NCBI RefSeq assembly: GCF_014843845.1
Contig: NZ_JHQS01000001.1
Coordinates: 1-36,900 of the forward strand
DNA length: 36,900 nucleotides
Direction: 5' to 3'
Source of the DNA: Mesorhizobium amorphae
GTDB lineage: Bacteria > Pseudomonadota > Alphaproteobacteria > Rhizobiales > Rhizobiaceae
Shown: positions 4,046 through 23,232 of the stretch, piece after piece
Layout: each line of letters starts with the position of its first letter
Position numbering within the stretch: position 1 is the first letter of the stretch
Notes under the pieces: generated by a model
The model's input: the letters and a program-made list of their open reading frames with translations, nothing else
Databases searched by the model: none
Told to the model about the DNA's origin: nothing
Position numbers and translations under genes: made by a program

Positions 4046-4243
4046 GTGGGAGCGGGGTCTGATTTGGACTTTCTCAGGCGGCTTTTCATTGTGGCGCTTG
4101 CTGGCGCGCTCAGCGCAGGTGCTGTTGCGCTCATCGAACGCCTGGTGCTTGAGCCCCCAAGGCCGACGGTCTCCGGCGAACCACCGCCTCTCCCCATCGT
4201 CAAGAAGAAGCCGGTGCGGCAATGGAAATGGCGCCTGACCTAG
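4046..4243 (+). CDS. possible small membrane protein, GTG start, overlapping the next gene
   Basis: A 65-residue reading frame starts at a GTG (VGAGSDLDFLRR) and contains one hydrophobic segment (FIVALAGALSAGAVALIERL), then a Pro-rich basic tail (PPLPIVKKKPVRQWKWRLT). It would overlap the PAP2 gene start by 22 bp, which would suit translational coupling. A TTG at 4013 is an alternative start. The membrane segment plus basic tail look protein-like, but no family is recognised, no good ribosome-binding site is seen, and the frame is short. It may be spurious. Confidence 0.35.
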   Translation: MGAGSDLDFLRRLFIVALAGALSAGAVALIERLVLEPPRPTVSGEPPPLPIVKKKPVRQWKWRLT

Positions 4244-5319
4244 CCCTAGAACGATCGCGCTTCTCTGCTTCCGCAAAGCTCGCAATCTTCTGCCTATGCT
4301 ATGCCGGACTAGCGGCCTACCTTTTTCCCGACACTTATTTTGCGGCGCTGGGCACCTACAGGCTGAGACTTCTCTACCTCATGCTGCCCTTCCTGATACT
4401 GCTCGGGCTTGCCATTGCCGCCATCATCAACCGGCCGCGCTCCCCGCTCAGCTGGTTGCGGGACAAGCTGAAGTCACGAGGCATCGGAGCGACGTGCACG
4501 CTGGGAATCTTCATCCTTTGTCTGGCTGCATTCACCACCTTCAAGCACGAATTCTCGCAGATGGTGCCCTTCTTCGCCGATCAAATCCTGGCGAGGATCG
4601 ACGCCGCCTTGCATTTCGGCGATCCCTGGCAATGGGCGCGCGCTCTGCCAATTCCGGCCTTTGCCGATCGGGCGCTCTATGTCCTTTATTCGCATCTGTG
4701 GTTTGTTCTGCTTGCCGGCATCGTCGTCGTCGCAGCCTGGCTTGACGATGCTTCGAAGCGTCAGCGCTACTTCCTGTCGCTCACTGTCGTGGTGATTGTT
4801 CTGGGCGTGATCGTGAGGTTGGCCGCGTCCTCGGCTGGACCGATCTTCTACGACCGGATGTTTGAGTCTGACAGGTTCGAAGACCTGATGACATCGCTAA
4901 AGGCGAGCAATGCCGGCCCCGACATCCTCCTGATCGCCGACTATCTTTATTCGTCTTACACGACCCATAAAGCGTCGATCGGTACTGGAATTTCGGCAAT
5001 GCCGAGTTTCCACGTCGCCATCGCTGTCCTGAACGCCCTTTTCCTCTGGAGCCTCAACCGATGGGCCGGCTTGATCGCCTGGATCTATGCAGGCCTTATC
5101 CTGTTCGGCTCGATCTACTTCGGATGGCACTACGCCACCGACGGCTATCTGGCGATCGTTGCAACTGTGATGATCTGGCGATATAGCGGGCGATGGGTAG
5201 GACAAAGCTGGCCAAATGGAGCGCGGGGCGCGCTCATCCCAGATCGACCCCGCGATCTTTCATGCGTGTCCAAAAGACAGGCCGGGCATTCGACAGCCGT
5301 CCGGCAAGAGCCCAGATGA
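4222..5319 (+). CDS. PAP2-superfamily (Aur1-type) integral membrane phosphatase/phosphotransferase
   Basis: The protein has 365 residues with about six membrane segments. The conserved PAP2 C-terminal motifs are present: SAMPSFHVA with His264 and GWHYATDGY with His303 and Asp307. The family cleaves or transfers lipid-linked phosphate groups at the membrane (lipid phosphatases, inositol-phosphorylceramide-synthase-like enzymes). The substrate cannot be read from sequence. About 40 residues after the last membrane segment (from ~NGARGALIP) are low-complexity and encoded opposite the end of the convergent paralogue, so the natural C-terminus may originally have been shorter. The first of two nearby ATGs (4222, 4228) is used; ribosome binding could be coupled to the small frame upstream. 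Confidence 0.85.
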   Translation: MEMAPDLALERSRFSASAKLAIFCLCYAGLAAYLFPDTYFAALGTYRLRLLYLMLPFLILLGLAIAAIINRPRSPLSWLRDKLKSRGIGATCTLGIFILCLAAFTTFKHEFSQMVPFFADQILARIDAALHFGDPWQWARALPIPAFADRALYVLYSHLWFVLLAGIVVVAAWLDDASKRQRYFLSLTVVVIVLGVIVRLAASSAGPIFYDRMFESDRFEDLMTSLKASNAGPDILLIADYLYSSYTTHKASIGTGISAMPSFHVAIAVLNALFLWSLNRWAGLIAWIYAGLILFGSIYFGWHYATDGYLAIVATVMIWRYSGRWVGQSWPNGARGALIPDRPRDLSCVSKRQAGHSTAVRQEPR

Positions 5320-6268
5320 TTGGCGTCGCCAACATGGAAGCGTATCCGTCGATCGCATAGTGCCAGGCAAGGTGCACAGCACCCAGCTGAATTGCGACCA
5401 GAAACGCTATGCCGGCCCAGCGCAACAGTCTGCCAAAACGCCAGAGATAGATGGCGTTCAGCGTAACGACGGCAACATGCAGCGAAGGAAAAGCCGATAT
5501 GCCGCTGCCTAGACGCGGACCATCCAGACCGGCATTGGCAAGAAGCATGCCCTGGGCATCGAGTGCCCATACCGGATAGGTTGAATCTGTCGCTTGCAGA
5601 TAGTTCATCAGCGGGACGAACGTCTCGTCGCCAAAAAAGGGCATGAGGAAGGCTGGTCCCACCGAAGCAAACAGCGTTGCGGCAAGATTGCCCAGGAGGG
5701 CCCAGGTGAGGACGAACGCAACAAGATACTGCGAACGAAGGCGTTGATTGCCCACCGAGAAAGTGACGCAAAACAGCACGATAAGCATCACTATGAACCA
5801 GAGATTGTAGAGAAAATTCAAGGCAAAGGTCAGTGGTCCGGCGCCAAGCAGAGGATGCAATATCTGCCATACATCATGGCCGCCATGGAGCGCTCTGTCG
5901 ATGTTCATCACGGTCGTGTCTGCGTAGTACGGCACAATGCGGCTGATGCCAGCCTTCATACTGGTGAACAGTGAAAAGAAGACCGGCAGGATCAGCGCAA
6001 CGGGAAGGCCAACGATGAGCCGGTCAGGCAGCTTGTTGACCAACAGGCGATCGCGCAGTGCGGGAAACAGCCGCTGTGGTCGCTCGAGCATGACGCGAAT
6101 CGAGATGACCGCAAAGAGGATAACGGTGACGCCGAGTCCAAACAGCAGGAATGCATCGCTGTAGATCTGGAAGTTGATCGAGATGTTCCAATATGCGGAG
6201 GCCGCGAGCACCGCCAGAGCGTAAACGACGACCACTACGAAGAACGGCCAATTGGCGCGCCAGACCAT
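5234..6268 (-). CDS. PAP2-superfamily (Aur1-type) membrane protein, paralogue of the convergent gene
   Basis: From the ATG at 6268 this encodes 344 residues (MVWRANWPFF); a TTG at 6349 would add 27 residues that do not look like a signal or membrane segment. PAP2 motifs are GISAFPSLHVA (His264) and LAWHYAIDGY (His303, Asp307). These are at exactly the same residue numbers as in the + strand paralogue, which argues for an ancient duplication. Both share a stretch before the catalytic core of the form PYYAD/PFFAD, then a short gap, then IDRAL/IDAAL. It lies about 90 bp after cpaA on the same strand and could be read through from the Tad operon. The substrate is unknown. Confidence 0.85.
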   Translation of the reverse strand: MVWRANWPFFVVVVVYALAVLAASAYWNISINFQIYSDAFLLFGLGVTVILFAVISIRVMLERPQRLFPALRDRLLVNKLPDRLIVGLPVALILPVFFSLFTSMKAGISRIVPYYADTTVMNIDRALHGGHDVWQILHPLLGAGPLTFALNFLYNLWFIVMLIVLFCVTFSVGNQRLRSQYLVAFVLTWALLGNLAATLFASVGPAFLMPFFGDETFVPLMNYLQATDSTYPVWALDAQGMLLANAGLDGPRLGSGISAFPSLHVAVVTLNAIYLWRFGRLLRWAGIAFLVAIQLGAVHLAWHYAIDGYASMLATPIIWALAGRLSNARPVFWTRMKDRGVDLG

Positions 6269-6360
6269 CAAACTGCCCCGAAATTCAAGCCCACCCACCC
6301 ATGGCAATGATGCCGTCTCCAAAGCGAAAATGCGCTGAGCTGGCCGCAAACAGCCAAGAG

Positions 6361-6909: not shown

Positions 6910-7449
6910 CTACCGCTCGACGTTCTGCACGCTGGAGGCGAGGAGCTTCAGATTGTTGGCGACGGTCGGATCTTTGGGCGCCAGCTCATAGGCCTTGAGG
7001 AAGTTGGTGCGCGCATCCTGCAGCTTGCCGCGCAGCAGATAGGAATAGCCGACATTGTTGTAATATTCGGGTGTCCCGCCAATCAGCTTGAACGCCCGGC
7101 CATAGGCCCGGTCGGCAAGGTCGAAGCGATGGATGCGGTCGCTGCAGGCGGCGAGACCCAGCCAGGCAACACCGTCATTGGGTGCGAGTTGCGTCGCCTT
7201 GTAGAACAGCGCGCCGGCATTGCCGTAATTTTCCGCGCGGAACTGGTTCTTGGCTTCGGCGACAGCCAGGTCGGAGGCATAGTATTCGACATCGCTGACC
7301 GTCTTCAGCCCGTCGAACGCATCGCCGAAAGCCGTAACGTCGCCCTTGGAGGGTTCATTGGTGCGAACGACACCGTCGGTGGCGTCTGTCTGGCAGCCGG
7401 CAATCGCAAGGATCAACAGGCCGGCTGCGGCCGCATTTTGCCATCTCAT
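6910..7449 (-). CDS. tadD: TadD-like TPR lipoprotein of the Tad pilus
   Basis: The start is the ATG at 7449 (MRWQNAAAAG), preceded by CGGGGA; an in-frame start at 7482 would displace the signal. Residues 1-19 are a lipoprotein signal ending ILAIAGC (Cys19). The rest is built of TPR helices, such as GNAGALFYKATQLAPNDGVA and RTNFLKAYELAPKDPTVANN. TadD is thought to act as the pilotin/assembly factor for the CpaC/RcpA secretin in the outer membrane. The length (179 residues) is short for the family. It sits between tadC and cpaA in the leftward operon. Family call strong; exact role by analogy. Confidence 0.88.
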   Translation of the reverse strand: MRWQNAAAAGLLILAIAGCQTDATDGVVRTNEPSKGDVTAFGDAFDGLKTVSDVEYYASDLAVAEAKNQFRAENYGNAGALFYKATQLAPNDGVAWLGLAACSDRIHRFDLADRAYGRAFKLIGGTPEYYNNVGYSYLLRGKLQDARTNFLKAYELAPKDPTVANNLKLLASSVQNVER

Positions 7450-7506
7450 ATATATGTCCCCGAGGGTTGACCCCAACATCACATTAGAATCAAAGCGTAA
7501 CCATAA

Positions 7507-8475: not shown

Positions 8476-9446
8476 TCAGAAATCGAAATTGACCATTCGG
8501 TACATGATGAAGTCGCCAATCAACGCCCAGATTCCGAAGATCAGGAACGCCGGCATGAGGAGTGGACTGTTCCACACAGCCCCGTAGAAGCTCGGCGCGA
8601 TAACCATCAGCAGGCCGAACATGACGAGCGGAAACAGCGAGATGATCCAGGCCGACATCCTGCCCTCCGCCGACAATGCCCGGATCTTCAGGCGCAGCTT
8701 CTGCCGCTCGCGCAGCACGGATGAGAGATTGGCCAGGATTTCCGTGAGGTTGCCGCCGGTCTTGGCCTGAATGGACAGCGATACCGACAGTAGATGAAGT
8801 CCCTCGAACCCAACCCGCTGCGAAAGTTTTCGCACCGCCTGCTCCAGGCTGAGGCCGAATGTGATCTCGTCGGAAACGATGCCGAATTCGGTGCCGAGCG
8901 GGTCAGGCATTTCGCGGGCCACGAGTGCGATCGCCACGGTGGTCGGGTGCCCGGCCCGCAATGAACGGACGATCATGTCCAATGCGTCTGGAAGCTGGCC
9001 GGCGAATTGGGCGATACGCTTGTTGCGTGCCCGCCGAAGCATCAGAAGCGGCAGGGCGAATCCAACAAGCAAAAAAGCGAGGAGGCCTGCTACAGACGAA
9101 AATCCGAAAATCAAAGGCAAGACCAGCGCCAGCACCAATCCTGCCAACAGGAACATTGCGGCGAAAGCCAGCGGATTGCCGGTGATGCCCGACTGCGTGT
9201 AGAGCCGGTTCAAGGCGACCATTCCGAAGATGTAGTCGCCTGATTCCGTCAATCCGCGTTCGCGCAACAGGCCTTGCAAGGTCTTCTCGGCCGGTGCTTC
9301 TTCCGCAAGGCGCGCAAGACGCCGGTTTATGACGCCGGCCCGGACGCGCCGCGATGCATAAGCCATGTAAAAGGATTCGGCGGCGAGGATCACCGACGCA
9401 GCGGCGAGCACGTAGATGAAGTAAAGCAGGGTCTGACCGGTCGGCA

Positions 9447-9447
<1 letters not shown>
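8476..9447 (-). CDS. tadB: TadB, type II secretion F-like inner-membrane platform protein
   Basis: The protein has 323 residues. It has N-terminal and central membrane segments (FIYVLAAASVILAA, then two helices around LAFAAMFLLAGLVLALVLPL), a T2SSF domain (GQLPDALDMIVRSLRAGHPT, later LSVSLSIQAKTGGNLTEILA) and two C-terminal helices. The central PDALD...LRAG pattern is typical of TadB. The gene starts at ATG 9447 with a TGATG overlap with the cpaF stop, so the two are translationally coupled. With TadC it should anchor the CpaF motor at the cytoplasmic membrane. Confidence 0.94.
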
Positions 9448-10823
<1,376 letters not shown>

Positions 10824-11200
10824 GTCGCTCGAGCCCCCCGAGAATCCCCAAGGTTGGAAACTAAGCGTTAACCACGCATGGCACAAGCGCCGAGCGCGGC
10901 CGAAAGGATCGAATACTTACAACATAGTTAAGACGAGACCCCAAAAAAATCGTTTTATTTCTAGGGTGTGTATCCAGGGGCACACCTCATCTCCAACCTC
11001 ACGAAACGTTTCGCCCTGCAACGTGCGAATGTGTCGTTGCGGACCCTCGGTAAACCCTTACATATAAAGGACTATGCACATACCCTAATATGATGGTGCT
11101 TCCGCCAAGAGTGCGGCAAATTTGTGAACGAATGGTTAAGGGCACTTAAAAAGCAAATCGAATCAATCCCTTGTCAGAATTGAACTGGCTTCCGATCAGG

Positions 11201-11354: not shown

Positions 11355-11567
11355 ATGAAGAAGCTCATGACGATGGCCCGGCAGTTCCGCGACGACGATA
11401 ACGGCGCTGCTATGGTCGAATATTCTATTCTGGTCGGCATCATCGCCGGCGCCGCGATCCTTATCATCGTCGGCATCGGCCTGTGGGTGGGCGGTCGGTT
11501 TACCGGGCTGTGCTCGGACTTGAACTCCAGCGGCATCGGCAGTTGCGGCAGCGGCACCGGAAGCTGA
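11355..11567 (+). CDS. flp: Flp-type pilin (major subunit of the Tad pilus)
   Basis: This 70-residue type IVb prepilin has a short basic leader ending in DDDNG (Gly17). CpaA would cleave there to give mature AAMVEYSILVG with Glu at +5 and Tyr at +6, the Flp signature. A 20-residue hydrophobic helix (to about residue 46) follows, then a short C-terminus rich in Gly, Ser and Cys with cysteines at CSDL and SCGS. The ribosome-binding site AGGGAG is 8 bases upstream. It is the first gene of the rightward Tad operon and the only Flp pilin in the window. Regulation is probably through the CtrA-type box, and expression relative to downstream genes may be shaped by the hairpins at 11582-11628. Confidence 0.95.
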   Translation: MKKLMTMARQFRDDDNGAAMVEYSILVGIIAGAAILIIVGIGLWVGGRFTGLCSDLNSSGIGSCGSGTGS

Positions 11568-11628: not shown

Positions 11629-11660
11629 GCTAATGCACAATGGGGTTGGGGCTTGGGTCG

Positions 11661-12698
11661 ATGCGCGCTAACACAATCATCATGATCGTCCTCGCCGGCG
11701 TGTTCGGCGTGCTGGCGGTGGTACTTGCCAATATCTGGCTGGCGAACCAGCGCAATGCGCTGGCGCAAGCGGACGGTGTGCAGCACGACACGGTCGTGGT
11801 GGCGGCAGTGGCGCTGAAGTTCGGCGACACGCTGACCGCGGAAAAGTTACATGAAATTGCGTGGCCGGCGGGCGCGGTCCCGGCTGGCGCCTTCAAGAGC
11901 ACCAAGGAGCTCCTGACCGGCGATGCCAAGCAGGCGCTGCAGGCGATCGGCGCCAATGAGCCGATAATTGCTACAAAGATCACCGGCCCCGGCCAGCGCG
12001 CCACGCTTTCGGCTGTGCTCACCGAAGGCATGAAGGCCGTTTCCATCAGGGTCAATGACGTGCTCGGCGTTGCCGGATTCGTGTTCCCAGGTGACCGGGT
12101 CGATGTGCTGTTGACTCGCACCCAGCGCAATCCCGACGGGGCGGATCAGAGTTTTGTCGACGTGCTGTTGCAGAGCATGAAGGTGCTCGCCGTCGACCAG
12201 GTGGCGGATGAAAGCAAGGACAGCCCGACAGTGGTGAAGTCGGTGACGCTGGAAGTCAGCACCAAGGATGCGCAGAAGCTGACATTGGCAGCAGGTGCCG
12301 GCCAGTTGTCGCTGGCGCTGCGCCAGGCTGCGGCCAGCAAGGGCGAATCGACCGACCGCGTGACGTTGGCGGACCTGACTGGCGATACGCCGGCGGACGT
12401 CGCCAAAAGGCAGGCTGAACTTGACAGGCAGGCAGCAGCCGAAGCCGAGGCGGCAGCCGAGCGCAAACGCGCCGACGACAAGTTGGCCGGGCTGACCCAG
12501 GCCGTCGAACGGGTCGGAAGCAGGCTCGACGATCTGAGCAAGGTCAAGCCGGCCCCGACTGTGGCATCTGCGCCGCAGGTAAAGGAAGTTGTAAAGGAAG
12601 TGGTCAAATATGTGCAGCCGGAACAGCCGGCACGGGCGACAGTCGGCGTCTTTCGAGGTATAAAACTCGAAACATACGATGTGCCGCGACAAAAGTAA
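11661..12698 (+). CDS. cpaB: CpaB/RcpC, periplasmic Tad pilus assembly protein
   Basis: From ATG 11661 (MRANTIIMIVLAGVFG) this is 345 residues; an ATG at 11640 would add seven Gly/Leu residues before the anchor. It has an N-terminal membrane helix, a SAF domain (~45-105) and an RcpC domain (~120-231; ISIRVNDVLGVAGFV-like phrase, FPGDRVDVLLTR). An Ala/Glu/Arg-rich coiled coil (~246-293) follows, and the conserved C-terminal strand ends near VFRGIKLETYDV. CpaB is thought to sit in the periplasm and stabilise or gate the CpaC secretin. It lies second in the operon. Confidence 0.93.
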   Translation: MRANTIIMIVLAGVFGVLAVVLANIWLANQRNALAQADGVQHDTVVVAAVALKFGDTLTAEKLHEIAWPAGAVPAGAFKSTKELLTGDAKQALQAIGANEPIIATKITGPGQRATLSAVLTEGMKAVSIRVNDVLGVAGFVFPGDRVDVLLTRTQRNPDGADQSFVDVLLQSMKVLAVDQVADESKDSPTVVKSVTLEVSTKDAQKLTLAAGAGQLSLALRQAAASKGESTDRVTLADLTGDTPADVAKRQAELDRQAAAEAEAAAERKRADDKLAGLTQAVERVGSRLDDLSKVKPAPTVASAPQVKEVVKEVVKYVQPEQPARATVGVFRGIKLETYDVPRQK

Positions 12699-12752: not shown

Positions 12753-14198
12753 ATGCGTGCGTTCTGGGGACGACTGGCGGCGGCCGCTCTCGCTTGTTCT
12801 GCAGCGCTATGGCCGCTGGGCATGGCGGCTCATGCTGCCGACCGCAACATCGACGTGTCGAACCCCACCGTCCACCGTGTCTTCATACCCACATCGCAAT
12901 CGGTAACGATCCAGGTGAACGCGACGCTGGGCGACATCGTCGTCGGTGACGAAAAGATCGCCGACGCCCAGCCGATGACCGACAAGACGCTCTATGTCAT
13001 CGGCAAGAGCGCTGGCACCACCACCGTCAACCTGTTTTCCGAGGACAAGCGTTCGCTTGGCGTTATCCAGGTCGAGGTCGGCGTCGACGTCAGCGACATG
13101 GCGCAGGCGATCCGCCAGGTGGCGCCCAAATCGCGAATCGAGATCGGTTCGATCAACGGCAAGGTCAGGCTTGCTGGCCACGTCAAGGACGGCGCCACGC
13201 TGGCAGCCATCGTGGAGGTGGCGCAGCAGTATGGCCCCGACGCCGTCATCAACTCCGTCATCGTCGACGACAGTCAGCAGGTCAATCTGGAAGTACGCAT
13301 ATTGGAGGCCAAGCGCAACGCCGGCCGCGACCTCGGCGTGTCGATCAGGAGCACGAATGGCAGCGGCACATCCCGCACCGGAACTGGCATCGCCACTGTC
13401 GACGAAGACAATATAGTGCTGGGACCTGGGAACTTGCTCACCGGCCTGCTGTCGAACACCAATCCGTTCGCAGCGTTGATCACCCGCGTTATCGACAGCA
13501 ACATCAAGGTCGATCTGATCATCGAGGCACTTGAGGCCAAGGGCGTGGTGCGCACGCTGGCCGAACCCAATTTGACCACGCTTTCAGGAGAGACGGCCAG
13601 TTTCAACGCCGGCGGCGAAGTGCCTATTCGCACTCTCGATAGCGATGGCGAGGTAAGTATCGTGTACAAGCAATTCGGCGTCAATCTGCTGTTCACGCCG
13701 GTCGTGCTCGACGATGGTAAGATCCATATGAAGCTGGCGCCCGAAGTGAGCGATCTGACCAGCTTCACCACCGCCGGCGACCCGATCTTCACCAATCGCA
13801 AACTGTCGACCACCGTCGAACTGCGCGACGGCCAGAGTTTCGCCGTCGGCGGGCTTCTATCCAGCAGGACCACCAAGCTCCAGAGACAGGTGCCATGGCT
13901 CGGTCAGGTGCCGGTCATCGGCACACTGTTCCGGAATTCGAGCAACCAGAAAGAAGAAACCGAGCTGGTCGTCGTCGTCACGCCGCATATCGTGCGGCCG
14001 GTCAAGCCCGGCGAGCAGCTGGCGACGCCGTTCGACAAGACGCGTCCGGCCAACGACCCGGAGTTCTTCATCCTCGGCCAGTTGGAAGTGACCAAGGACA
14101 TGGTTCGCAAATATGAACTCGGCGAAGGCGTGACCGGCCCTTACGGCCACATGCTGGACCTCAAATCGAAGGACAAGATGCTCTATGTCAAGAAATAG
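12753..14198 (+). CDS. cpaC: CpaC/RcpA outer-membrane secretin of the Tad pilus
   Basis: The protein has 481 residues. GGGGG lies a few bases before the ATG. The signal peptide ends near MAAHAAD (~29). It has an N-terminal CpaC domain (~34-105, VTIQVNATLGDIVVGD), a BON-like domain (~110-170) and a secretin core (~215-405) ending in the signature VPWLGQVPVIGTLFR, then ETELVVVVTPHIVRP. The oligomer would form the outer-membrane channel through which the Flp pilus emerges. It sits between cpaB and a small lipoprotein gene that overlaps its 3' end by 14 bp. Confidence 0.95.
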   Translation: MRAFWGRLAAAALACSAALWPLGMAAHAADRNIDVSNPTVHRVFIPTSQSVTIQVNATLGDIVVGDEKIADAQPMTDKTLYVIGKSAGTTTVNLFSEDKRSLGVIQVEVGVDVSDMAQAIRQVAPKSRIEIGSINGKVRLAGHVKDGATLAAIVEVAQQYGPDAVINSVIVDDSQQVNLEVRILEAKRNAGRDLGVSIRSTNGSGTSRTGTGIATVDEDNIVLGPGNLLTGLLSNTNPFAALITRVIDSNIKVDLIIEALEAKGVVRTLAEPNLTTLSGETASFNAGGEVPIRTLDSDGEVSIVYKQFGVNLLFTPVVLDDGKIHMKLAPEVSDLTSFTTAGDPIFTNRKLSTTVELRDGQSFAVGGLLSSRTTKLQRQVPWLGQVPVIGTLFRNSSNQKEETELVVVVTPHIVRPVKPGEQLATPFDKTRPANDPEFFILGQLEVTKDMVRKYELGEGVTGPYGHMLDLKSKDKMLYVKK

Positions 14199-14466
14199 CG
14201 TCCTGATCCTCCTCTTGAGCGCCGGCGCGCTGACGGGCTGCGCCGCCGACTATCTGAACAATTACGACACGGTGACGCTGGCAGCCGGCGATACGCAGAA
14301 ATTCAATTCGCTTCTGCAGACGGTCGATCCGCTGAATCCGAACTCGAAGAACACCACCATCGAGGGCGACGGTGTGCGCGCCGCCGGTGCTGCGCAGAGG
14401 TACAAGATTCCGCCACCGCCACCGCCGGCGCCGAACATCACGGTGAACGTCGGCAATACGAATTGA
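14185..14466 (+). CDS. small Pro-tailed lipoprotein in the CpaD position
   Basis: This 93-residue protein has a lipoprotein signal ending GALTGC (Cys19). A short body contains a phrase (AAGDTQKFNSLLQT) and the C-terminus is a run of prolines followed by NITVNVGN. It begins inside the last codons of cpaC (14-bp overlap) and precedes tadG, the place where many Tad loci encode the ~200-residue CpaD/RcpB lipoprotein. The size is too small for CpaD as I know it. It could be a reduced functional substitute or an unrelated accessory. The gene is convincing from position, overlap and signal; the role is inference. Confidence 0.75.
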   Translation: MSRNSVLILLLSAGALTGCAADYLNNYDTVTLAAGDTQKFNSLLQTVDPLNPNSKNTTIEGDGVRAAGAAQRYKIPPPPPPAPNITVNVGNTN

Positions 14467-14538: not shown

Positions 14539-16044
14539 ATGTTGCGAACCATTCGCGCGTTCTGGCACGATCAAAGGGGTGTAGCGCTCGTTCTAGTGGC
14601 CATCATGCTGCCGGCGATCATCGGCTTTTCGCTGCTGGTGATCGATATGAGCCGGGCCAACAATCTGCAAAACGACCTGCAAAAGGGCGCCGACGCATTT
14701 GCGCTTGCGGGTGCCGCCGAGCTTGACGGGACGACCGGGGCCTGGGCGCGGGCCGAGCGCGCCATGGCGACGCTGGTCGACAATGAGAGCAATTTTTCGA
14801 CTTCGGGTCGCTTCACTTTGACCTCCGGGCAACCGGGTGGCGCGGTGCGATGCAACAGTGCCGGAAACATTTCCTGGTGCTTCCTCAAGGCAATCCCCCC
14901 TGCGGACGGCACCCAGATAACGACTGCCAATCAGGCAAGCTATCTTGCCAATTCCGACCCAGTCGCAGGCGAACTGGAGAGCCGGTTCGTACAGGTCAGG
15001 GTCACGCCAACAGGCTACGACACAATATTCCCGGTCTCGTTCCTGCCCGGCGGCACCAGCAATACGTGGACCATCGGGTCGGTGGCGGTCGCCGGTTTCA
15101 GGTCGAGCGTCTGTGACTACACGCCGGTGTTCATGTGCAATCCCTATGAGGCGGCAGCAGGCAACGATACGGGCGGCGTAACGCTGGAAATGGCCGCCAA
15201 CCAGCAACAGTACCGGCGTCGCCAAATCCTTTTGCGCAACAACGGCTCCTATCAACCCGGCAACTTTGCATTTCTTGACTCACCGTTAGGAAACGGCGCG
15301 AACGCCTTGGAGGCTTCGATCGCGGCTGTGAAACCCGTCGGTTGCTACGCACAGGATGGCGTCGACACCAAGCCAGGACAGAACGCAGGGCCAGTGAAAG
15401 ACGGACTGAATGCCCGCTTCGGTATCAGCAAGAATTACATCGGAACTGCCATCGGCCCGGCAGCCAATGTCCGGATGGGGCTGACAAGCATCAACTGCAA
15501 CAACGGCCACACCACATTCGAAACCGATGTCAACAAGGGCGTCGGGCTTGAACGCGACTCGTGCCAGACCGCCGGCAACTGCACCATGATGGGCGGCCGC
15601 ATGGGCGCCGGCGATTGGAACGCCAGCCGCTATTGGACCGTCAATCATCCGACACGCGGCGCTTTGCCTTCATCGCTTGTAGGGGCCACCCGCTACGAAA
15701 TGTACCGTTATGAGCTTAACCCCGACGGGAACCCGAACACCAGCGACAGCATCGTTGGTGATGCGGCAGTGAGCGGCGAAACGGGCACGCCGTCATGCAG
15801 CCAGACACCCGTCACAACCGTGGACCGGCGCATTCTTTATGGCGCCATCATCGATTGCACCGCCATCGGCGGATTCAATGGTGCCGCGAACAATGTCCCC
15901 GTGAAGGCCTTTGGCAGCTTCTTCATCACTGAGCCGATTAGCGACGGCAAGGATATCTATGTCGAGCTGGTCGACATCACCGGCAAAGGCGGTCGTGGCA
16001 CGCTCGACAATTTCCTGCGCGACGAAGCCCAGCTTTACCGGTGA
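14539..16044 (+). CDS. tadG: TadG-like pilus assembly protein (TadE/G N-terminal segment, large exoplasmic domain)
   Basis: The protein has 501 residues. The N-terminus carries the TadE/TadG-type helix (DQRGVALVLVAIMLPAIIGF) followed by VIDMSRANNLQNDLQKGADA, typical of the TadG/DUF2134 group. The remaining ~460 residues are a Cys-containing exoplasmic region (e.g. CDYTPVFMCNP, SINCNNGHTT, RDSCQTAGNCTMM) that may be disulfide-stabilised. It precedes two TadE-like genes, coupled by TGATG. TadG is thought to be a membrane-anchored periplasmic part of the assembly machine. I see no von Willebrand domain with an obvious MIDAS. Confidence 0.88.
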   Translation: MLRTIRAFWHDQRGVALVLVAIMLPAIIGFSLLVIDMSRANNLQNDLQKGADAFALAGAAELDGTTGAWARAERAMATLVDNESNFSTSGRFTLTSGQPGGAVRCNSAGNISWCFLKAIPPADGTQITTANQASYLANSDPVAGELESRFVQVRVTPTGYDTIFPVSFLPGGTSNTWTIGSVAVAGFRSSVCDYTPVFMCNPYEAAAGNDTGGVTLEMAANQQQYRRRQILLRNNGSYQPGNFAFLDSPLGNGANALEASIAAVKPVGCYAQDGVDTKPGQNAGPVKDGLNARFGISKNYIGTAIGPAANVRMGLTSINCNNGHTTFETDVNKGVGLERDSCQTAGNCTMMGGRMGAGDWNASRYWTVNHPTRGALPSSLVGATRYEMYRYELNPDGNPNTSDSIVGDAAVSGETGTPSCSQTPVTTVDRRILYGAIIDCTAIGGFNGAANNVPVKAFGSFFITEPISDGKDIYVELVDITGKGGRGTLDNFLRDEAQLYR

Positions 16045-16592
16045 TGGCGATGATCAGAACCCTGTTCCGTCACCTCCAGAGATTTCGACGCGACCATCGC
16101 GGCACCACGCTTGTCGAGACGGCGCTGATACTACCGCTGATGGTGCCCCTGTCGGCGGGCGTGTTCGAATTCGGCAATCTGATCCACGACAAGCTGCTGA
16201 TGGAGGCCGGACTTTCGGATGGCGCCCGTTTTGCCGCGCGCTGCAACAGCAAGATGTATACCGATTCCGGGCTGGCTGCGATCGACTGCGCCGACATCGC
16301 CACCAACATAGCGGTGTTCGGCAATGTGGGAGGCACAGGCAACCCGCGCATCAAAGGCTGGCTGAAAGCGGGGGGGACATCCAACAATGCGACGGTGACC
16401 ATCGCCGCCAGCGCCTCCTGCCACGACGCGGTGGTTGCCGGCGTCACGGAATACCGCTCCACCACCGCACAGGTCTGCATCGTCAGGGCGACGGGAGCCT
16501 ATCCCTATAGCGGCATCGGCATGCTGTCGTTGCTCAACATCGGTCCGATCACGCTCAACGGCTTCCACGAGGAGCGGTTGATCCGATTCTGA
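16044..16592 (+). CDS. tadE: TadE-like pseudopilin (first of two)
   Basis: From ATG 16044 (overlapping the tadG stop as TGATG; a GTG sits just before) this is 182 residues. A basic leader (RTLFRHLQRFRRDHRG) precedes TTLVETALILPLMVPL, the pseudopilin cleavage pattern with Glu at +5 after Gly. A single helix and a small periplasmic domain with several Cys follow (RCNSKM, DCADI, SCHDAV, QVCIVRA). It should be processed by CpaA. Translational coupling to both neighbours suggests stoichiometric production. Confidence 0.92.
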   Translation: MAMIRTLFRHLQRFRRDHRGTTLVETALILPLMVPLSAGVFEFGNLIHDKLLMEAGLSDGARFAARCNSKMYTDSGLAAIDCADIATNIAVFGNVGGTGNPRIKGWLKAGGTSNNATVTIAASASCHDAVVAGVTEYRSTTAQVCIVRATGAYPYSGIGMLSLLNIGPITLNGFHEERLIRF

Positions 16593-17242
16593 TGATGATC
16601 AGGCGCTTCGCAAAATCGGAAGATGGGTCAGCGATGGTGGAAATGGCCATCGTTTCGACGCTGCTGTTTGCCCTGACGCTGGGCTTCGTTGATTTCGGCT
16701 ACGCGCTCTACCAATGGAATGCCGCGACCAAGGCCGTCCAGATTGGTGCGCGGCTGGCATCCATCTCCGACCCGGCCGCAACCAATCTGACGGCTTCCGC
16801 ACCGACGACGAGCCCGGGCGCGCCGGTTGTCGCCGGCGCGTATGGACCTTTCGTCTGCACTTACAGCGGCAACACCGGATCTTGCAGCAATGGCGGCACG
16901 TTCAATGCCACCAATTTCAGCCGCATTTTCCGGGGGGACACGGCTGTCACCAACGACAACACCTGTCCGACAATCACCGCAGCCCAGCGGCTCACCATGC
17001 GGCCTGGCATGTGCCACTTCTTCCCGGGCCTGCAGCGCGACAATATTGTCATCACCTATTCCGCCACCGGCCTCGGCTACCAGACGCGGGTGGGCGGCCC
17101 GGTGCCGACAATAACCGTCAACCTGCAGAACATGACCTACCAGTTCTTCTTCCTGGGCGGACTGTACGGTTTCGGAAACATGACAATGCCCTCCATGTTG
17201 AGCACAGTCACGGGCGAAGATTTGAAGAGTACCGCGTCATGA
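16592..17242 (+). CDS. TadE-like pseudopilin (second of two; TadF-like position)
   Basis: The protein has 216 residues. The leader (MMIRRFAKSEDG) is cleaved before SAMVEMAIVSTLLFALTLGF (Glu at +5), again the TadE-type pattern. The exoplasmic domain has Ser/Thr/Asn-rich stretches and several cysteines (VCTYSGNTGSCSN, NTCPT, GMCHFF). It starts in the stop of the previous gene (TGATG) and its own stop overlaps the cpaE start (ATGA). It is probably a CpaA substrate acting at the base or tip of the pilus. TadE or TadF cannot be decided from sequence alone. Confidence 0.9.
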   Translation: MMIRRFAKSEDGSAMVEMAIVSTLLFALTLGFVDFGYALYQWNAATKAVQIGARLASISDPAATNLTASAPTTSPGAPVVAGAYGPFVCTYSGNTGSCSNGGTFNATNFSRIFRGDTAVTNDNTCPTITAAQRLTMRPGMCHFFPGLQRDNIVITYSATGLGYQTRVGGPVPTITVNLQNMTYQFFFLGGLYGFGNMTMPSMLSTVTGEDLKSTAS

Positions 17243-18402
17243 ATGCCATCAACACCAAGGTCCTTCCGACAAAACGCAAGCAGGTCGCCCTGTTCTCGTC
17301 CGATCCACAGTTCAAGCGCGAGGTGGCGACACGGCTCGATGCGCTGGCGATCTACGACGTCAGGGTTTCCGATACGGGCGACTTCCTCAAGGGGCCGCCC
17401 GCCGACACGCGGCCCGGCATCGTCATCCTCGACTTTGGCCATGGCGAGCTGCTCGGCCAGCCGGGCATCGTCGAGGCGCGCGCCAAATGGGCATCGGTGC
17501 CGCTGATCGCCGTCTCCGACGAACTGACGTCGGAGCAGACGCGGGCGCTGGTGCGCATGAACGCTTCGGACTGGCTGCACAAGCCGCTCGACGCCAAAGA
17601 GTTGCTCAACGCCGTCACCTTCCACGACACCGGCAACCAGGGAACCAAGAGCCGCATCATCACCTTCATCGGCGCCAGCGGCGGCGCCGGCGCCACGACG
17701 CTGGCGCTGTCGGCGGCGGAATTCCTGGCGTCGAAATCATCTGAGCGCGCAGCGTCGACCTGCCTGGTCGATCTCGATTTCCAGAGCGCCAATTGCGGCG
17801 CCTATCTCAATCAGTTCAATCAGTTCGACCTTGCCGGCATCATCGGCATGCCGGAAAGGCTCGATGTCGAGCTGATGGACGTCATCAAGCTGTCGCGTCC
17901 GTCAGGCCTGACGCTCTATTCCTTCGAGCGGCCGCAACTGCCGTTCGAGCCGCAGGGTGCGGATTTCGTGTTCCGGCTGCTCGACCTCGTCGCCTACCGG
18001 TTCGACGACATCGTCATCGACCTGCCGAACATCGAGACGCCCTGGCACAATTCGGTGCTGTCGACGAGCGACGAGATCTTCATCGTCTTCGAGCTCAACG
18101 TCGCCTCGCTGCGCCAGGGCAAGCGGCTCTACAAGAAGATCCGCGAATTGCGCGGCAACAAGGTCAGCATCACGCTGGTCGCCAACAAGCACAAGCGCAA
18201 ATGGTTCGGAAACCACTTCTCGCGCAGCGAGCTGGAAAAGATCTTCAAGGCGCCGCACATCAAGTCGGTCGCGCTCGACAACGCGCTTTTGACCGATGCC
18301 TTGAACCGTGCCATCCTGCCTCTGGAGGTGGACGGGCGGGCACGCTTCAACAAGGATTTGAAGCGGATGTTCAAGGAACGGCTGGACGATGCCGCTCGCT
18401 AG
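17239..18402 (+). CDS. cpaE: CpaE/TadZ, receiver-like plus MinD/ParA-like localisation ATPase homologue
   Basis: The start is the ATG in the ATGA overlap with the preceding gene. The protein is 387 residues; a longer open frame upstream is antisense-like composition, not protein. Residues ~14-125 resemble a response-regulator receiver (VILDFGHG with Asp65, later Lys115). Residues ~140-380 form a MinD/ParA-like domain with a P-loop-like GASGGAGATT (145-154) and LVDLDFQSANCG (177-188). Both lysines of the deviant Walker A motif (KGGxGKT) are replaced (Ser147, Ala152), so ATP hydrolysis may be lost, as described for some TadZ proteins. Its role is to place the Tad machine in the cell. An L,D-transpeptidase gene overlaps its 3' end by 14 bp. 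Confidence 0.92.
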   Translation: MNAINTKVLPTKRKQVALFSSDPQFKREVATRLDALAIYDVRVSDTGDFLKGPPADTRPGIVILDFGHGELLGQPGIVEARAKWASVPLIAVSDELTSEQTRALVRMNASDWLHKPLDAKELLNAVTFHDTGNQGTKSRIITFIGASGGAGATTLALSAAEFLASKSSERAASTCLVDLDFQSANCGAYLNQFNQFDLAGIIGMPERLDVELMDVIKLSRPSGLTLYSFERPQLPFEPQGADFVFRLLDLVAYRFDDIVIDLPNIETPWHNSVLSTSDEIFIVFELNVASLRQGKRLYKKIRELRGNKVSITLVANKHKRKWFGNHFSRSELEKIFKAPHIKSVALDNALLTDALNRAILPLEVDGRARFNKDLKRMFKERLDDAAR

Positions 18403-18973
18403 CCACCGCTTCGCCCACGGCTTCACCGGCGCCTGCATGATGGGCCTGGCACTGGCGTCGGCCTGCGATATCGCCGAGGCCCGGTCGGCGCTTCTGGACC
18501 GCCCGCCGCTGCCGGCCATGGGTCCCAGCCTGCGCAAGACGGTCGCCTTCGCAACCAGCGAACAGGCCGGCACGATCATCATCCGCAAGGACGAGAAGGC
18601 GCTCTACCTGGTGACCAGCCAGGGGCAGGCATTGCGCTACCAGATCAGCGTCGGCCGCGACGGCTTCGGCTGGACCGGAACCGTCAAGGTCGGCGCCAAG
18701 ACGGAATGGCCCGAATGGCGGCCGCCCAAGGAAATGCGCGCCCGCCAGCCGGAGCTGCCGGCCATGGTGCCGGCCGGTCCCTACAACCCGCTTGGCGCAC
18801 GCGCCCTTTACCTCTCCCGGGACGGGCGCGACACGCTCTACCGCATCCATGGCACCAACGATCCCAAAGGGGTCGGCTTCGACGGAACATCGGGCTGTTT
18901 TCGCCTTACCAACACCGATGTGATCGATCTCTTCAAGCGCGTCGCGGTGGGCGCAAAGGTGGTGGTGGAATGA
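18389..18973 (+). CDS. L,D-transpeptidase (YkuD) encoded at the end of the Tad operon
   Basis: The protein has 194 residues: an N-terminal hydrophobic signal (GACMMGLALASACDIAEA, possibly a lipobox-like Cys), then a YkuD domain from ~60. The catalytic region reads YRIHGTNDPK (His154) and then GTSGCFRLTN (Cys170, Arg172), that is HxG..(S)GCxR with Ser in place of the usual His before Gly-Cys. The enzyme class makes 3-3 crosslinks in peptidoglycan or attaches proteins to it. It begins inside the cpaE stop region (14-bp overlap) and its stop overlaps the next start (ATGA), so it is translationally coupled to the pilus operon. The larger transpeptidase at 22228 is a separate paralogue. Confidence 0.9.
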   Translation: MPLASHRFAHGFTGACMMGLALASACDIAEARSALLDRPPLPAMGPSLRKTVAFATSEQAGTIIIRKDEKALYLVTSQGQALRYQISVGRDGFGWTGTVKVGAKTEWPEWRPPKEMRARQPELPAMVPAGPYNPLGARALYLSRDGRDTLYRIHGTNDPKGVGFDGTSGCFRLTNTDVIDLFKRVAVGAKVVVE

Positions 18974-19542
18974 CTATGATCAGCGACCCGGACATGCCGG
19001 CCATCGAACTCGGCGCGCAGGAAGTCGTCGCCGGCAAGCCCAGCCGCAAAGGCACCATCGGTGTCGTTGTCGCGGGGGCTGCGCTGGTCACCATCGTGAA
19101 CCTGACGGCCGCCGTCTATCTCTACCGCGGCATGAACGATTTGCGCGTCGTGGAAGCCCGGCTGGAGCAGCTCGGCCAGTTCGAGCAGCGCATCGGCGCC
19201 CGCCTCGATACGATTAACAACGGCTTCCAGAGCCGGTTCGAAAAACTGGACAGCCAGCTGCAAGCGGATTTCAACGAAATCGACCGCAACGTTGCCCGGC
19301 TTGAGCAGAACCCGCCCGTTGCCGCTAGCGACGAAGGCATGAGCGCCGCCGAACCCACGGTGGTCACGACAAGCACGGCGGAGGAAGCCCCTGCCGTTGC
19401 CGAAAACATGGCGGAGCCGGATGCGATCGAGATGCCGCGCCCGCCGAGAAAGCGGACCCCGGCTGTTGCACCCCCACCAAACCCCGCCTACCAGCGTATC
19501 CAGCAGGCAGACGGCAAGGTCTACTACAAGAAGATCAACTAG
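18970..19542 (+). CDS. single-pass membrane protein with periplasmic coiled coil, Tad-linked, unknown family
   Basis: From the ATG in the ATGA overlap with the L,D-transpeptidase this is 190 residues. Residues ~29-52 are one membrane helix (GTIGVVVAGAALVTIVNLTA) after a 28-residue cytoplasmic lead. Residues ~55-112 are a regular coiled coil (RVVEARLEQLGQFEQRIGAR, then FEKLDSQLQADFNEID). After that comes an Ala/Glu/Pro-rich linker and a basic C-terminus (PRPPRKRTPAV, then YQRIQQADGKVYYKKIN). I recognise no family. Coupling to the transpeptidase suggests it tethers or regulates that enzyme, or spans the periplasm beside the pilus; this is inference. Confidence 0.85.
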   Translation: MTMISDPDMPAIELGAQEVVAGKPSRKGTIGVVVAGAALVTIVNLTAAVYLYRGMNDLRVVEARLEQLGQFEQRIGARLDTINNGFQSRFEKLDSQLQADFNEIDRNVARLEQNPPVAASDEGMSAAEPTVVTTSTAEEAPAVAENMAEPDAIEMPRPPRKRTPAVAPPPNPAYQRIQQADGKVYYKKIN

Positions 19543-19569: not shown

Positions 19570-20106
19570 CTAAAGATCTCGCTGCAGAGCCAGGATGCGG
19601 ATCGCGCGTGCTTCGGTGCGCTGCCTGGCTTCGCTGAGGAAGGCAATATGGCAATAGGCGCATGCGGCGGCGCCGAGGGCCAGCACCAGGCTGTTCTTCA
19701 AGGTGAAGTCGACCATCAGCGAGAACTGAAGGCCTCTCGGCGCCGTGAATGAGGCAATGGTGCTCGCCGTTTCCGAATGACTGCTGACGGCGATCATCAG
19801 GCCGGCAAAAAGCAGGGCGACATGGTTGGCCAGAAAGAAGGCGGCCGATGCCCTCGCCCGGCAGGCCATCCAGCAAAGAATGGACGCACTGGCCAGTATT
19901 GCGGCGTCAAGCGCGAACGAGCCACCCAGATAGAGGCCGACCTGCTGCCAGAACATCGTCGCCAATGGGCGCAGTTCAAGCCAGATCCACCACATTGCGG
20001 GGCTGGACGGATAGGCGCCGAGCAGGAACGTCGCCGTTCGCTCCGCCGCCAGAATGAGCAGCATGAGGGCTGGGAAGGCAAAGAGCAGTACTGGTTTGCG
20101 CTTCAT
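19570..20106 (-). CDS. multi-pass membrane protein of unknown function
   Basis: The protein has 178 residues and about four hydrophobic segments (LLFAFPALMLLILAA, LAS-rich helix near 70-88, FFLANHVALLFAGLMIAV, LVLALGAAACAYCHIAFL), with a charged Arg-rich C-terminus (RQRTEARAIRILALQRDL). No catalytic motif is seen. It converges on the Tad operon with a 27-bp gap and diverges from the nuclease-fold gene to the right. The composition is a normal bacterial inner-membrane protein; nothing ties it firmly to the pilus. Confidence 0.75.
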   Translation of the reverse strand: MKRKPVLLFAFPALMLLILAAERTATFLLGAYPSSPAMWWIWLELRPLATMFWQQVGLYLGGSFALDAAILASASILCWMACRARASAAFFLANHVALLFAGLMIAVSSHSETASTIASFTAPRGLQFSLMVDFTLKNSLVLALGAAACAYCHIAFLSEARQRTEARAIRILALQRDL

Positions 20107-22021: not shown

Positions 22022-22227
22022 AGTCGAATTCAATAATTTCAATATTTTATGTGATGTTTTGTAACATTGTGACGTTCATAAAAATGAACTGATAGACAAC
22101 CCTCGTATTTCAGTCAGCCCTGGGATCGGGAATGCCACCCTGGTCGGTTCTGTCCTGCAGCTGCCAGGGACGGAACCAGATAGGACCCTGCCGCGTCATA
22201 GAAGCAGGTTCCCGTGGAGTCACATCG

Positions 22228-23232
22228 ATGCTTAGGCTCGTTCTGTTCATCGCCGCGGCGCTCGTCCTCGCCTCCGCCGGGACCGAGGCGGCCAAGCTGG
22301 ACCTAGCCACCGTCAATCAGGCCCAATTCGCCGCCGGAGAACCGAAAGGCTTCAGCCCGGCCCTCCTGAAGGCAGAGATTCTTTTGGATCGCGCCCGCTT
22401 CTCGCCGGGCCTGATCGACGGGCGCGTTTCAGAGAACTTCACCAAAGCGGTCCGGGCCTTTCAGGCGGCGAACGGTTTCCCATCCGATGGCAAGCTTACT
22501 CTGGAGACCTGGGACAAGCTGATGGCAACGTCCGGCAGCCCGGTCCTGGTCACCTATGAGCTGACGCGCAAAGATGTGCGCGGACCTTTTACCAAGCGTA
22601 TTCCGGCGCGCCTGGAGAGGATGGCCCGCCTGCCGCGGCTCGGCTATCACAACGCGATGGAGAAGCTGGCGGAACGCTTCCATGTCAGCGAACAATTGCT
22701 CAGACGGCTCAATCCGGGCACCCGCTTTAAGAAGGTCGGCACGAAGTTGCTTGTGCCGGATGTTGGTCGGGGCGATCCTCCTACTGCCGTTGCCGGCGTC
22801 GAGGTCGACACGGGCGCACGCCTTGTGCGCGTGCTTGATCCCTCGGGAAAATGGCTCGCAGTCTTCCCGGCTTCCATCGGCAGCGACGAGAAGCCGGCGC
22901 CGAATGGCGAGGCGGAGATCAGACGCGTGGTGCGCAATCCCACCTATCACTACGATCCCGACTTCGCTTTCAAGGGGGTCAAGGCCAAGCGGCCGTTCAC
23001 CATTGCGGCCGGACCGAACAATCCGGTGGGATCGGTCTGGGTCGATCTCTCCATCGAAAGTTACGGCATTCACGGCACGCCCGAACCCGGCAAGATCGGC
23101 GCGACCTTCTCGCATGGCTGCATCAGGCTGACCAACTGGGATGCCGAGGACCTCGCTTCCATGGTGCAGAAAAACACGAAAGTTAGCTTCAAGGACGAAA
23201 TGGCGAACGCAGGCGACGAGCGGCCTCAGTAG
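22228..23232 (+). CDS. L,D-transpeptidase with peptidoglycan-binding and LysM-like domains
   Basis: The start is ATG 22228, nine bases after GGAG; an ATG at 22132 would add a non-signal leader. The protein is 334 residues: a Sec signal (MLRLVLFIAAALVLASAG), a PG_binding_1 domain (~44-98), a LysM-like segment (~138-180, HNAMEKLAERFHVSEQLLRR), and a YkuD domain (~192-321) with YGIHGTPEPG (His282) and FSHGCIRLTN (Cys298, Arg300). This is the canonical periplasmic 3-3 crosslinking enzyme. All catalytic residues are present. It stands alone, about 200 bp right of the tRNA-end fragment. Confidence 0.93.
   Translation: MLRLVLFIAAALVLASAGTEAAKLDLATVNQAQFAAGEPKGFSPALLKAEILLDRARFSPGLIDGRVSENFTKAVRAFQAANGFPSDGKLTLETWDKLMATSGSPVLVTYELTRKDVRGPFTKRIPARLERMARLPRLGYHNAMEKLAERFHVSEQLLRRLNPGTRFKKVGTKLLVPDVGRGDPPTAVAGVEVDTGARLVRVLDPSGKWLAVFPASIGSDEKPAPNGEAEIRRVVRNPTYHYDPDFAFKGVKAKRPFTIAAGPNNPVGSVWVDLSIESYGIHGTPEPGKIGATFSHGCIRLTNWDAEDLASMVQKNTKVSFKDEMANAGDERPQ

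What the first reader, a model, noticed from the sequence alone, without database searches (positions are those of the whole stretch)
18389..19542. L,D-transpeptidase and coiled-coil membrane protein translationally locked to the Tad pilus operon
Seen: the YkuD gene starts inside the last codons of cpaE (14-bp overlap). Its stop overlaps the start of a single-pass membrane protein with a long periplasmic coiled coil (ATGA). Established: Tad operons usually end at cpaE or structural genes, and YkuD enzymes crosslink peptidoglycan or attach proteins to it. Inference: the pair may remodel or brace the cell wall where the Flp pilus passes, with the coiled coil as tether or ruler. I know of no described Tad component of this kind. 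The active-site motif differs slightly (TSGCFR instead of SHGCxR).
Basis: partly seen in the sequence, partly recalled or inferred. Interest (0 to 1): 0.7.

Follow-up and report, generated by a model that had tools for sequence, protein, structure and literature searches.

The report
Pilus operon's own cell-wall stapler
One kind of bacterial grappling-hook (Tad) pilus carries its own cell-wall cross-linking enzyme gene and, in the rhizobial relatives, a gene for a predicted membrane coiled-coil protein as inherited parts of its gene cluster, and the enzyme likely staples the pilus's outer pore to the cell wall, which would be a new way to anchor such a machine.

Summary
In detail: a YkuD L,D-transpeptidase (Ldt, 18389-18973) starts 14 bp inside cpaE, and a coiled-coil membrane protein (CC, 18970-19542) starts in its stop. 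The link to Tad pili is conserved. In the genus sample this cpaE, the Ldt and (one cut contig aside) CC are present in the same 28 of 37 genomes and absent from the other 9. A family search put 22 of 22 best Ldt hits in Tad loci. Of the 80 named genome loci kept, the 41 best are Tad-linked, in Hyphomicrobiales and Rhodobacterales; with other Tad-linked Ldts they form one clade at 100/99. The more widespread order is cpaE-Ldt-cpaF; Mesorhizobium shows another. New clue: the secretin CpaC of Ldt-type loci has a C-terminal extension ending in two basic residues (…YVKK), in 57 of 58 loci against 0 of 45 Tad secretins without Ldt. That resembles the C-terminal lysine by which transpeptidases fix Lpp and OutB to peptidoglycan. 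I propose that Ldt attaches the secretin to the wall and CC ties that assembly to the inner membrane. The association is shown; the reaction is inferred. Pilotin binding and a gene overlap are serious alternatives for the tail.

The parts
18389..18973 (+). Ldt: Tad-linked L,D-transpeptidase, 194 aa, catalytic stretch IHGTN...GTSGCFRLTN
   Evidence: PF03734 2e-21; lies in a clade of 47 Tad-linked Ldts at 100/99
18970..19542 (+). CC: predicted inner-membrane coiled-coil protein, 190 aa, with a conserved C-terminal hairpin motif YxR...DGKVYYKK
   Evidence: tail motif in 40 of 42 CCs, and 40 hits among 5499 distinct ORFs, 39 of them CC and one a further CC homologue
17239..18402 (+). CpaE, gene directly upstream; 14 bp overlap with Ldt
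   Evidence: PF13614 above cut-off, response-regulator match below it; orthologue in 28 of 37 genus genomes
12753..14198 (+). CpaC secretin, proposed substrate of Ldt
   Evidence: PF00263 1.7e-46; best solved relative RcpA 8odn
14163..14195 (+). C-terminal extension of CpaC after GHMLDL, ending Lys-Lys (KSKDKMLYVKK); proposed Ldt acceptor tail
   Evidence: Window sequence; 57 of 58 Ldt-linked Tad secretins end in two basic residues, 0 of 45 without Ldt
14185..14466 (+). 93-aa lipoprotein in the place of cpaD; its start overlaps the Lys-Lys codons in the +1 frame
   Evidence: No PF09476 match, whereas the Caulobacter-like Tad locus of the same genome has one at 3.4e-52; overlap
6910..7482 (-). 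TadD-like TPR protein (pilotin candidate)
   Evidence: TPR matches
9447..10886 (-). CpaF motor ATPase
   Evidence: PF00437 2.5e-63
8476..9447 (-). TadB platform protein
   Evidence: PF00482
7507..8397 (-). TadC platform protein
   Evidence: PF00482
6361..6900 (-). prepilin peptidase
   Evidence: PF01478
11355..11567 (+). Flp pilin candidate, 70 aa
   Evidence: PF04964 9.9e-05, below its cut-off
11640..12698 (+). CpaB/RcpC
   Evidence: TIGR03177 2e-63
14539..16044 (+). TadG-like
   Evidence: PF13400
16041..17242 (+). two TadE/TadF-like pseudopilins (16041-16592, 16592-17242)
   Evidence: PF07811

Best explanation
The transpeptidase gene and, in the rhizobial families, the coiled-coil gene are inherited parts of one kind of Tad pilus gene cluster, and the enzyme likely attaches the C-terminal lysine of the pilus secretin CpaC covalently to peptidoglycan, while the predicted coiled-coil membrane protein would tie that wall-fixed pore to the inner membrane. 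Shown here: linkage, shared presence and absence, a single clade, and the lysine-ended secretin tail that goes with the enzyme. Inferred: export of Ldt to the periplasm; TadD binding the conserved GH-x-x-D-L stretch just before the tail; Ldt forming an amide between the tail lysine and the diaminopimelate of a stem peptide, as for Lpp and OutB; CC, anchored by one helix, spanning part of the periplasm with its coiled coil and flexible linker and docking its hairpin on the secretin, TadD or CpaB side. Such an anchor would hold the pore against retraction force in a Tad type that lacks the CpaD domain proposed to do this in Caulobacter.
For: Linkage: 28 of 37 genus genomes hold this CpaE and the Ldt, 27 also CC (in the 28th, G006, the contig ends inside the Ldt gene), and 9 of 37 hold none. 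22 of 22 best family hits are in Tad loci. Of the 80 named loci kept, 41 of 41 at E<=5e-56 are Tad-linked, 0 of 39 at E>=5e-53. Tree: 43 Tad-linked Ldts one clade at 100/97 against 22 paralogues; 47 at 100/99. Secretin tail: 57 of 58 dibasic with Ldt, 0 of 45 without, 0 of 3 more without; background 33 of 1443 long ORFs. G097 and G112 lie inside the Ldt-type secretin clade of a quick tree and end VVKP and QQP; their best Ldt matches, at 2.6e-47 and 2.7e-43, are on other contigs and weaker than any Tad-linked family hit. S. meliloti LMB1 keeps secretin-lipoprotein-Ldt-TadD-CC together; S. meliloti 1021 has secretin-lipoprotein-TadD with no Ldt or CC found in the 13 kb read, and its secretin ends GHFLELQ. 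Codons: where the lipoprotein codon spanning the last two secretin codons is Arg it is AGA in 39 of 40 cases, though AGA is 1.8% of 2004 Arg codons in CpaF ORFs, as expected if the lysine frame is selected. CC tail: 22 of 23 long Ldt-type loci, 0 of 52 stretches fetched around Tad-type secretins or cpaE without Ldt. Precedent: OutB, a secretin scaffold, is attached through its C-terminal lysine (PMC12274547, abstract, section 9 and passages).
Against: I saw no biochemistry for any of these proteins. The last residues of P. aeruginosa RcpA bind the pilotin TadD (PMC10499894, section 11), so the tail may serve TadD. The tail overlaps the lipoprotein start in 57 of 58 loci, which constrains both frames. 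The sister Ldts in type III secretion loci go with secretins ending GFYVE, 0 of 3 dibasic. Nine of 58 tails end K-R, so the lysine is not last, and one ends K-E. On the tree only 2 independent concordant changes exist, 0 discordant, 1 without change; the sign test cannot reach significance. CC was not found in the 9 Rhodobacterales loci within the 6 kb or less held on each side, so it may not be needed everywhere. A second Tad class in the same genome lacks both CpaD domain and a linked Ldt (L041), so missing CpaD does not force an Ldt. The genus genomes hold several further Ldt matches each that could do the same work.
Confidence: 0.48

Rival explanations
1. The Ldt acts on the wall itself: it makes or edits 3-3 cross-links around the machine to reinforce or shape the passage, and the dibasic secretin tail is simply the TadD (pilotin) recognition tip of this Tad type.
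For: 3-3 cross-linking is a standard Ldt reaction (PMC11527210, passages). RcpA's last residues bind TadD (PMC10499894). The sister Ldts of type III loci have no lysine-tailed secretin. Agrobacterium Ldts have distinct, partly pole-linked roles (PMC11527210, passages).
Against: A GHxx stretch like the one at the end of ordinary Tad secretins is still present upstream of the tail in 58 of 58, and none of the 45 Tad secretins without Ldt, most of them with a TadD hit in the same stretch, has a dibasic tail.
Confidence: 0.31
2. CC is the direct partner or substrate of Ldt: it recruits or activates the enzyme at the inner membrane, or is itself joined to the wall.
For: The ATGA junction is conserved in 20 of 20 genus loci and 7 of 7 loci of other genera. 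CC has a conserved C-terminal hairpin with basic residues.
Against: CC does not end in lysine in the genus: P0001-P0120 all end in Asn, with Lys third from the end in 111 of 120. In the cpaE-Ldt-cpaF loci CC lies several genes away from Ldt. No CC was recognised near the Rhodobacterales Ldts.
Confidence: 0.14
3. The Ldt is an ordinary wall enzyme that happens to ride in the pilus operon.
For: The genus genomes hold 5-12 Ldt matches each, so function could overlap.
Against: One exclusive clade, shared presence and absence with this cpaE, and two orders of bacteria.
Confidence: 0.03

Closest known systems
OutB/GspB of the Dickeya type II secretion system (PMC12274547)
   Same: A secretin-associated protein fixed covalently to peptidoglycan by L,D-transpeptidases through a C-terminal lysine; links inner membrane, wall and secretin.
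   Different: There the attached protein is an inner-membrane scaffold and the two enzymes also attach Lpp. Here the lysine tail is on the secretin itself and the enzyme gene lies in the pilus operon. CC lacks the terminal lysine and has no Pfam match to the OutB region at E<=1.
CpaD and CpaI of the Caulobacter Tad machine (PMC13170226, passages)
   Same: Proposed to anchor the Tad secretin to peptidoglycan and bridge to the inner-membrane part.
   Different: CpaD is predicted to bind peptidoglycan through an OmpA-like fold. The four Ldt-type lipoproteins tested (93-117 aa) have no PF09476 match, and an Ldt is present.
Braun lipoprotein Lpp and its L,D-transpeptidases
   Same: C-terminal lysine as acceptor of an L,D-transpeptidase (PMC12274547).
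   Different: Lpp is an abundant lipoprotein with general enzymes (recalled); here a machine-specific pair is proposed.
CpaM polysaccharide deacetylase (PMC10934763, section 5 part 1)
   Same: A cell-wall-type enzyme already tied to Tad pilus portals.
   Different: Different chemistry; its S. meliloti homologue is an orphan gene away from the cluster.
Hyphomicrobiales outer-membrane barrels linked by Ldts (PMC12729407 and PMC11527210, passages)
   Different: Those use the N-terminus with an Ala-Asp motif, not a C-terminal lysine.

Membership tests
YkuD L,D-transpeptidase (PF03734) | profile match above the curated cut-off | tested here: met
   77.5 bits against 23.4
YkuD L,D-transpeptidase (PF03734) | catalytic Cys with the His-Gly upstream and Gly-Cys-x-Arg | tested here: met
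   IHGTN and GTSGCFR in 20 of 20 genus loci; His-Gly and Gly-Cys-Phe-Arg invariant in 13 aligned Tad-linked Ldts
YkuD L,D-transpeptidase (PF03734) | histidine of the SHGC motif (motif recalled) | tested here: not met
   TSGC in the window; SSGC in 22 of 23 other relatives by the pattern, so not taken as a bar to membership
YkuD L,D-transpeptidase (PF03734) | transpeptidase activity | not testable with these tools
   needs protein and muropeptide assays
Tad pilus system | CpaF, TadB, TadC, CpaB, CpaC, TadE/G, CpaE, prepilin peptidase in one locus | tested here: met
   Pfam and NCBIfam hits
Tad pilus system | Flp pilin gene | tested here: inconclusive
   PF04964 at 22.5 bits, below its cut-off 32.2, at 11355-11567
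Tad pilus system | CpaD lipoprotein domain PF09476 (a Caulobacter-type feature, not universal) | tested here: not met
   no match in the 93-aa lipoprotein; 3.4e-52 in the other Tad locus L042 of the same genome
Lpp/OutB-type wall-attached protein: CpaC | C-terminal lysine | tested here: met
   the window's CpaC ends Lys-Lys; last residue Lys in 48 of 58 Ldt-linked secretins, 9 end Lys-Arg, 1 Lys-Glu
Lpp/OutB-type wall-attached protein: CpaC | covalent bond to peptidoglycan | not testable with these tools
   needs sacculus mass spectrometry
Lpp/OutB-type wall-attached protein: CC | C-terminal lysine | tested here: not met
   120 of 120 listed homologues end in Asn; in other genera the last residue varies (R, Q, K)

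The most novel reading that the evidence does not exclude
A secretin welded to the cell wall: one lineage of Tad pili, spread over two orders of Alphaproteobacteria, carries its own L,D-transpeptidase that joins a lysine tail of the outer-membrane pore to peptidoglycan, with a coiled-coil strut to the inner membrane in the rhizobial branch; and the enzyme belongs to a portable secretin module that a type III secretion system also uses.
Probability: 0.4. Interest if true: 0.88.

Novelty: new variant of a known kind. Interest (0 to 1): 0.73.

Why it matters
How retractable pili are held in a thin wall while pulling on the cell is open; for Tad, the secretin-wall link I found described rests on maps and predictions in Caulobacter (PMC13170226, passages). 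A pilus-specific transpeptidase with a lysine-tailed secretin would give a covalent answer that one sacculus experiment can test. It would also add machine-specific work to a family of enzymes seen mostly as general cross-linkers, and it points to two genes, named only 'L,D-transpeptidase' and 'hypothetical protein' in most of the named records seen here, as likely pilus components in Mesorhizobium, Rhizobium and Sinorhizobium.

Tried and rejected
CC as an Lpp- or OutB-like substrate: rejected, no conserved terminal lysine. Deviant catalytic motif as a sign of new chemistry: rejected, family-wide. Lipoprotein or TadD as lysine-tailed substrates: tails vary, no shared lysine. Secretin N-terminus as an Ala-Asp acceptor: the window's CpaC reads AAHAADRN near a likely cleavage site, but R. 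etli and S. meliloti read AQEK (read by eye), so not conserved. PDB search by sequence and fold search for CC: nothing. Profile comparison of the two CC groups aligned only the last 19 columns, P 0.0077, probability 5%, so their homology rests mainly on the tail motif, topology and position. A test of TadD groove residues through solved TadD was not possible: the matches listed were other TPR proteins.

Rows dropped before counts: secretins L043 and L049 (reading of the end doubtful), L223 and L224 (no CpaE, CpaF or TadD hit in the stretch; ends IIE), 6 exact duplicates, and loci without a usable secretin (such as L062, L127, L131). L206 was kept as 'no Ldt' although its contig ends early and no other Tad gene was hit; L050 was counted as Ldt-linked because its Ldt lies in the adjoining stretch L051. 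L051 and L052 were left out of the first Ldt tree as copies of L005 and L008. In some searches L153 and L159 count among the 39 non-Tad loci; one search shows both are type III loci.
Full report
What is there. The window is one whole contig of the genome called G000; the named relatives of its proteins are almost all Mesorhizobium. It holds a Tad locus in two divergent halves: cpaF, tadB, tadC, a tadD-like TPR gene and a prepilin peptidase on the minus strand, and a pilin candidate, cpaB, cpaC, a 93-aa lipoprotein, tadG, two tadE-like genes, cpaE, ldt and CC on the plus strand.

Is the link to Tad real? Of 61 genomes searched, 37 are of the genus. CpaE orthologues at 87% identity or more occur in 28 of 37, Ldt at 82% or more in the same 28, CC in 27 of these, single and directly after Ldt; the remaining 9 have none of the three. 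In the one exception for CC, G006, the contig ends two bases after the Ldt match, inside the gene. Twenty loci were read in full: CpaE directly upstream in 20 of 20, both overlaps in 20 of 20. In a search of 297 family genomes, 22 had an Ldt hit at E<=1e-55. In 21 it lies next to cpaE; in the 22nd (L079) it lies in a block of secretin, lipoprotein, Ldt and TadD beside another Tad cluster. In seven loci of other genera the order cpaE-ldt-CC is kept. In ten more distant loci the Ldt sits between cpaE and cpaF. A CC or CC-like gene is in 10 of these 10, one of them (G118) only by a weak profile hit and the tail motif. In 7 it lies beside tadD; in the other 3 (L063-L065) tadD is not in the stretch read. 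Named plasmids of R. etli, R. ruizarguesonis and S. fredii show the same order with CC beside tadD. One family genome, G337, keeps this CpaE but gives no hit for cpaC, the lipoprotein, Ldt or CC at the locus.

How wide and how old? A scan of the named genome collection kept the best 80 of 588 loci. All 41 loci at E<=5e-56 are Tad-linked and 0 of 39 at E>=5e-53 are. Nine of the 41 are Rhodobacterales by their titles (lineage of one looked up, families printed). In the tree 47 Tad-linked Ldts form one clade at 100/99. Its sister, three Ldts, lies in type III secretion loci with an export gate protein, SctU and a secretin, and in two of them a TPR protein. So the enzyme goes with secretins of two kinds of machine.

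CC. Within the genus it varies more than Ldt (mean identity 0.65 against 0.86) but looks under purifying selection. AlphaFold2 gives one long helix, a low-confidence linker and a C-terminal hairpin. A model of the R. etli CC-like protein has the same layout with the hairpin at about 81 pLDDT, the rest poor. The tail motif is in 40 of 42 CCs; of 40 hits among 5499 distinct ORFs 39 are CC and one is a further CC homologue. It is in 26 of 41 named Tad loci and 0 of 39 others, with 6 kb or less held on each side, and in 0 of 52 stretches fetched around Tad-type secretins or cpaE without Ldt. An order-wide sample gave 7 convincing CC hits in 297 genomes, all in this family, and two marginal ones that I take for chance.

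The secretin tail. Looking for a substrate I compared C-termini of the envelope parts. Secretins of Ldt-type loci end in two basic residues. After removing duplicates and four doubtful rows: 57 of 58 with Ldt, 0 of 45 without; three type III secretins 0 of 3. Three more loci without Ldt, among them S. meliloti 1021 pSymA, also lack it. Of the 45 secretins without Ldt 34 stop within four residues of a GH-x-x-x-x stretch, five run on for 9-17 and six have no such stretch; all 58 of the Ldt type run on for 10 or 11. G097 and G112 lie inside the Ldt-type secretin clade, lack the dibasic end and hold no Ldt close to the Tad type: best matches 2.6e-47 and 2.7e-43, on other contigs. Only two independent concordant changes are available, so the tree gives no significance (quick tree, SH-aLRT support only).

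The main confound. In 57 of 58 loci the lipoprotein gene starts inside the secretin tail in the +1 frame. Two observations suggest that the lysines are selected themselves. Where the lipoprotein codon that spans the last two secretin codons is Arg, it is AGA in 39 of 40 cases, although AGA is 1.8% of 2004 Arg codons in CpaF ORFs of such loci. And in 9 of 57 loci the overlapped lipoprotein residues are QNA, QND or SEN, not basic, while the secretin keeps K-R or R-K. The second confound is TadD: in P. aeruginosa the last residues of RcpA bind it (PMC10499894, section 11 read).

Mechanism. Lpp and OutB show that L,D-transpeptidases join a C-terminal lysine to the wall, with tolerance for the residues before it (PMC12274547, abstract, section 9 and passages). 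In Caulobacter, maps show density from secretin to wall, and the authors assign the parts to CpaD and CpaI (PMC13170226, passages). The four Ldt-type lipoproteins tested lack the CpaD domain. A covalent secretin anchor fits these facts. The type III sister clade without lysine-tailed secretin, the K-R endings and the L041 class (no CpaD domain and no linked Ldt) count against it.

What is known. Paper searches joining Tad or Flp pili with transpeptidase terms found no such link in their listings. The three papers that hold both terms mention them apart, by the passages seen. A search on secretins and covalent wall attachment brought OutB, seen in more than the listing, and other listings not opened; one on type III secretion found no paper. 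A term search for transpeptidase gave 0 in PMC10934763, PMC13170226, PMC8383342 and PMC12918737. The library holds open-licence papers only. The S. meliloti study lists the secretin, lipoprotein and TadD of its third locus (PMC10934763, section 5 part 1); in strain 1021 I found no Ldt there.

Verdict. The finding is real and broader than stated; the pair is part of a Tad subtype. The covalent secretin anchor is my preferred and directly testable reading, at somewhat under even odds.

Noticed in passing
window 22132-23232 (+): A second Ldt with a peptidoglycan-binding domain and the SHGC motif.
   Followed up: partly
window 19570-20106 (-): A 178-aa protein without Pfam match, probably a membrane protein by eye, that faces CC and recurs beside several Ldt-type Tad loci of other genera (33-35% identity); possibly another accessory gene.
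   Followed up: partly
L076, L153, L159: Type III secretion loci of Hyphomicrobiales with a secretin bearing the pilus N-terminal domain (tested in L153 and L159) and the sister Ldt: the secretin block may have been borrowed between the two machines.
   Followed up: partly
L074 14824-16125 and relatives: An AAA ATPase gene between tadC and the CC-like gene in Rhizobium and Sinorhizobium Tad loci, mostly 75-95% identical to the R. etli one, unexplained.
   Followed up: no
L062 (G337): A Tad locus in which cpaC, the lipoprotein, Ldt and CC give no hit and tadD only a short one, while the motor half remains.
   Followed up: no
window 14185-14198: Start of the lipoprotein gene nested in the last codons of cpaC; a dual-coding overlap kept in 57 of 58 Ldt-type loci.
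   Followed up: yes
G000 contigs C92 and C79 (L041, L042): Two further Tad loci in the same genome, neither with an Ldt in the stretch read; one has a full CpaD.
   Followed up: partly
window 4222-5319 (+) and 5234-6349 (-): Two PAP2-type phosphatase genes facing each other beside the Tad locus.
   Followed up: no
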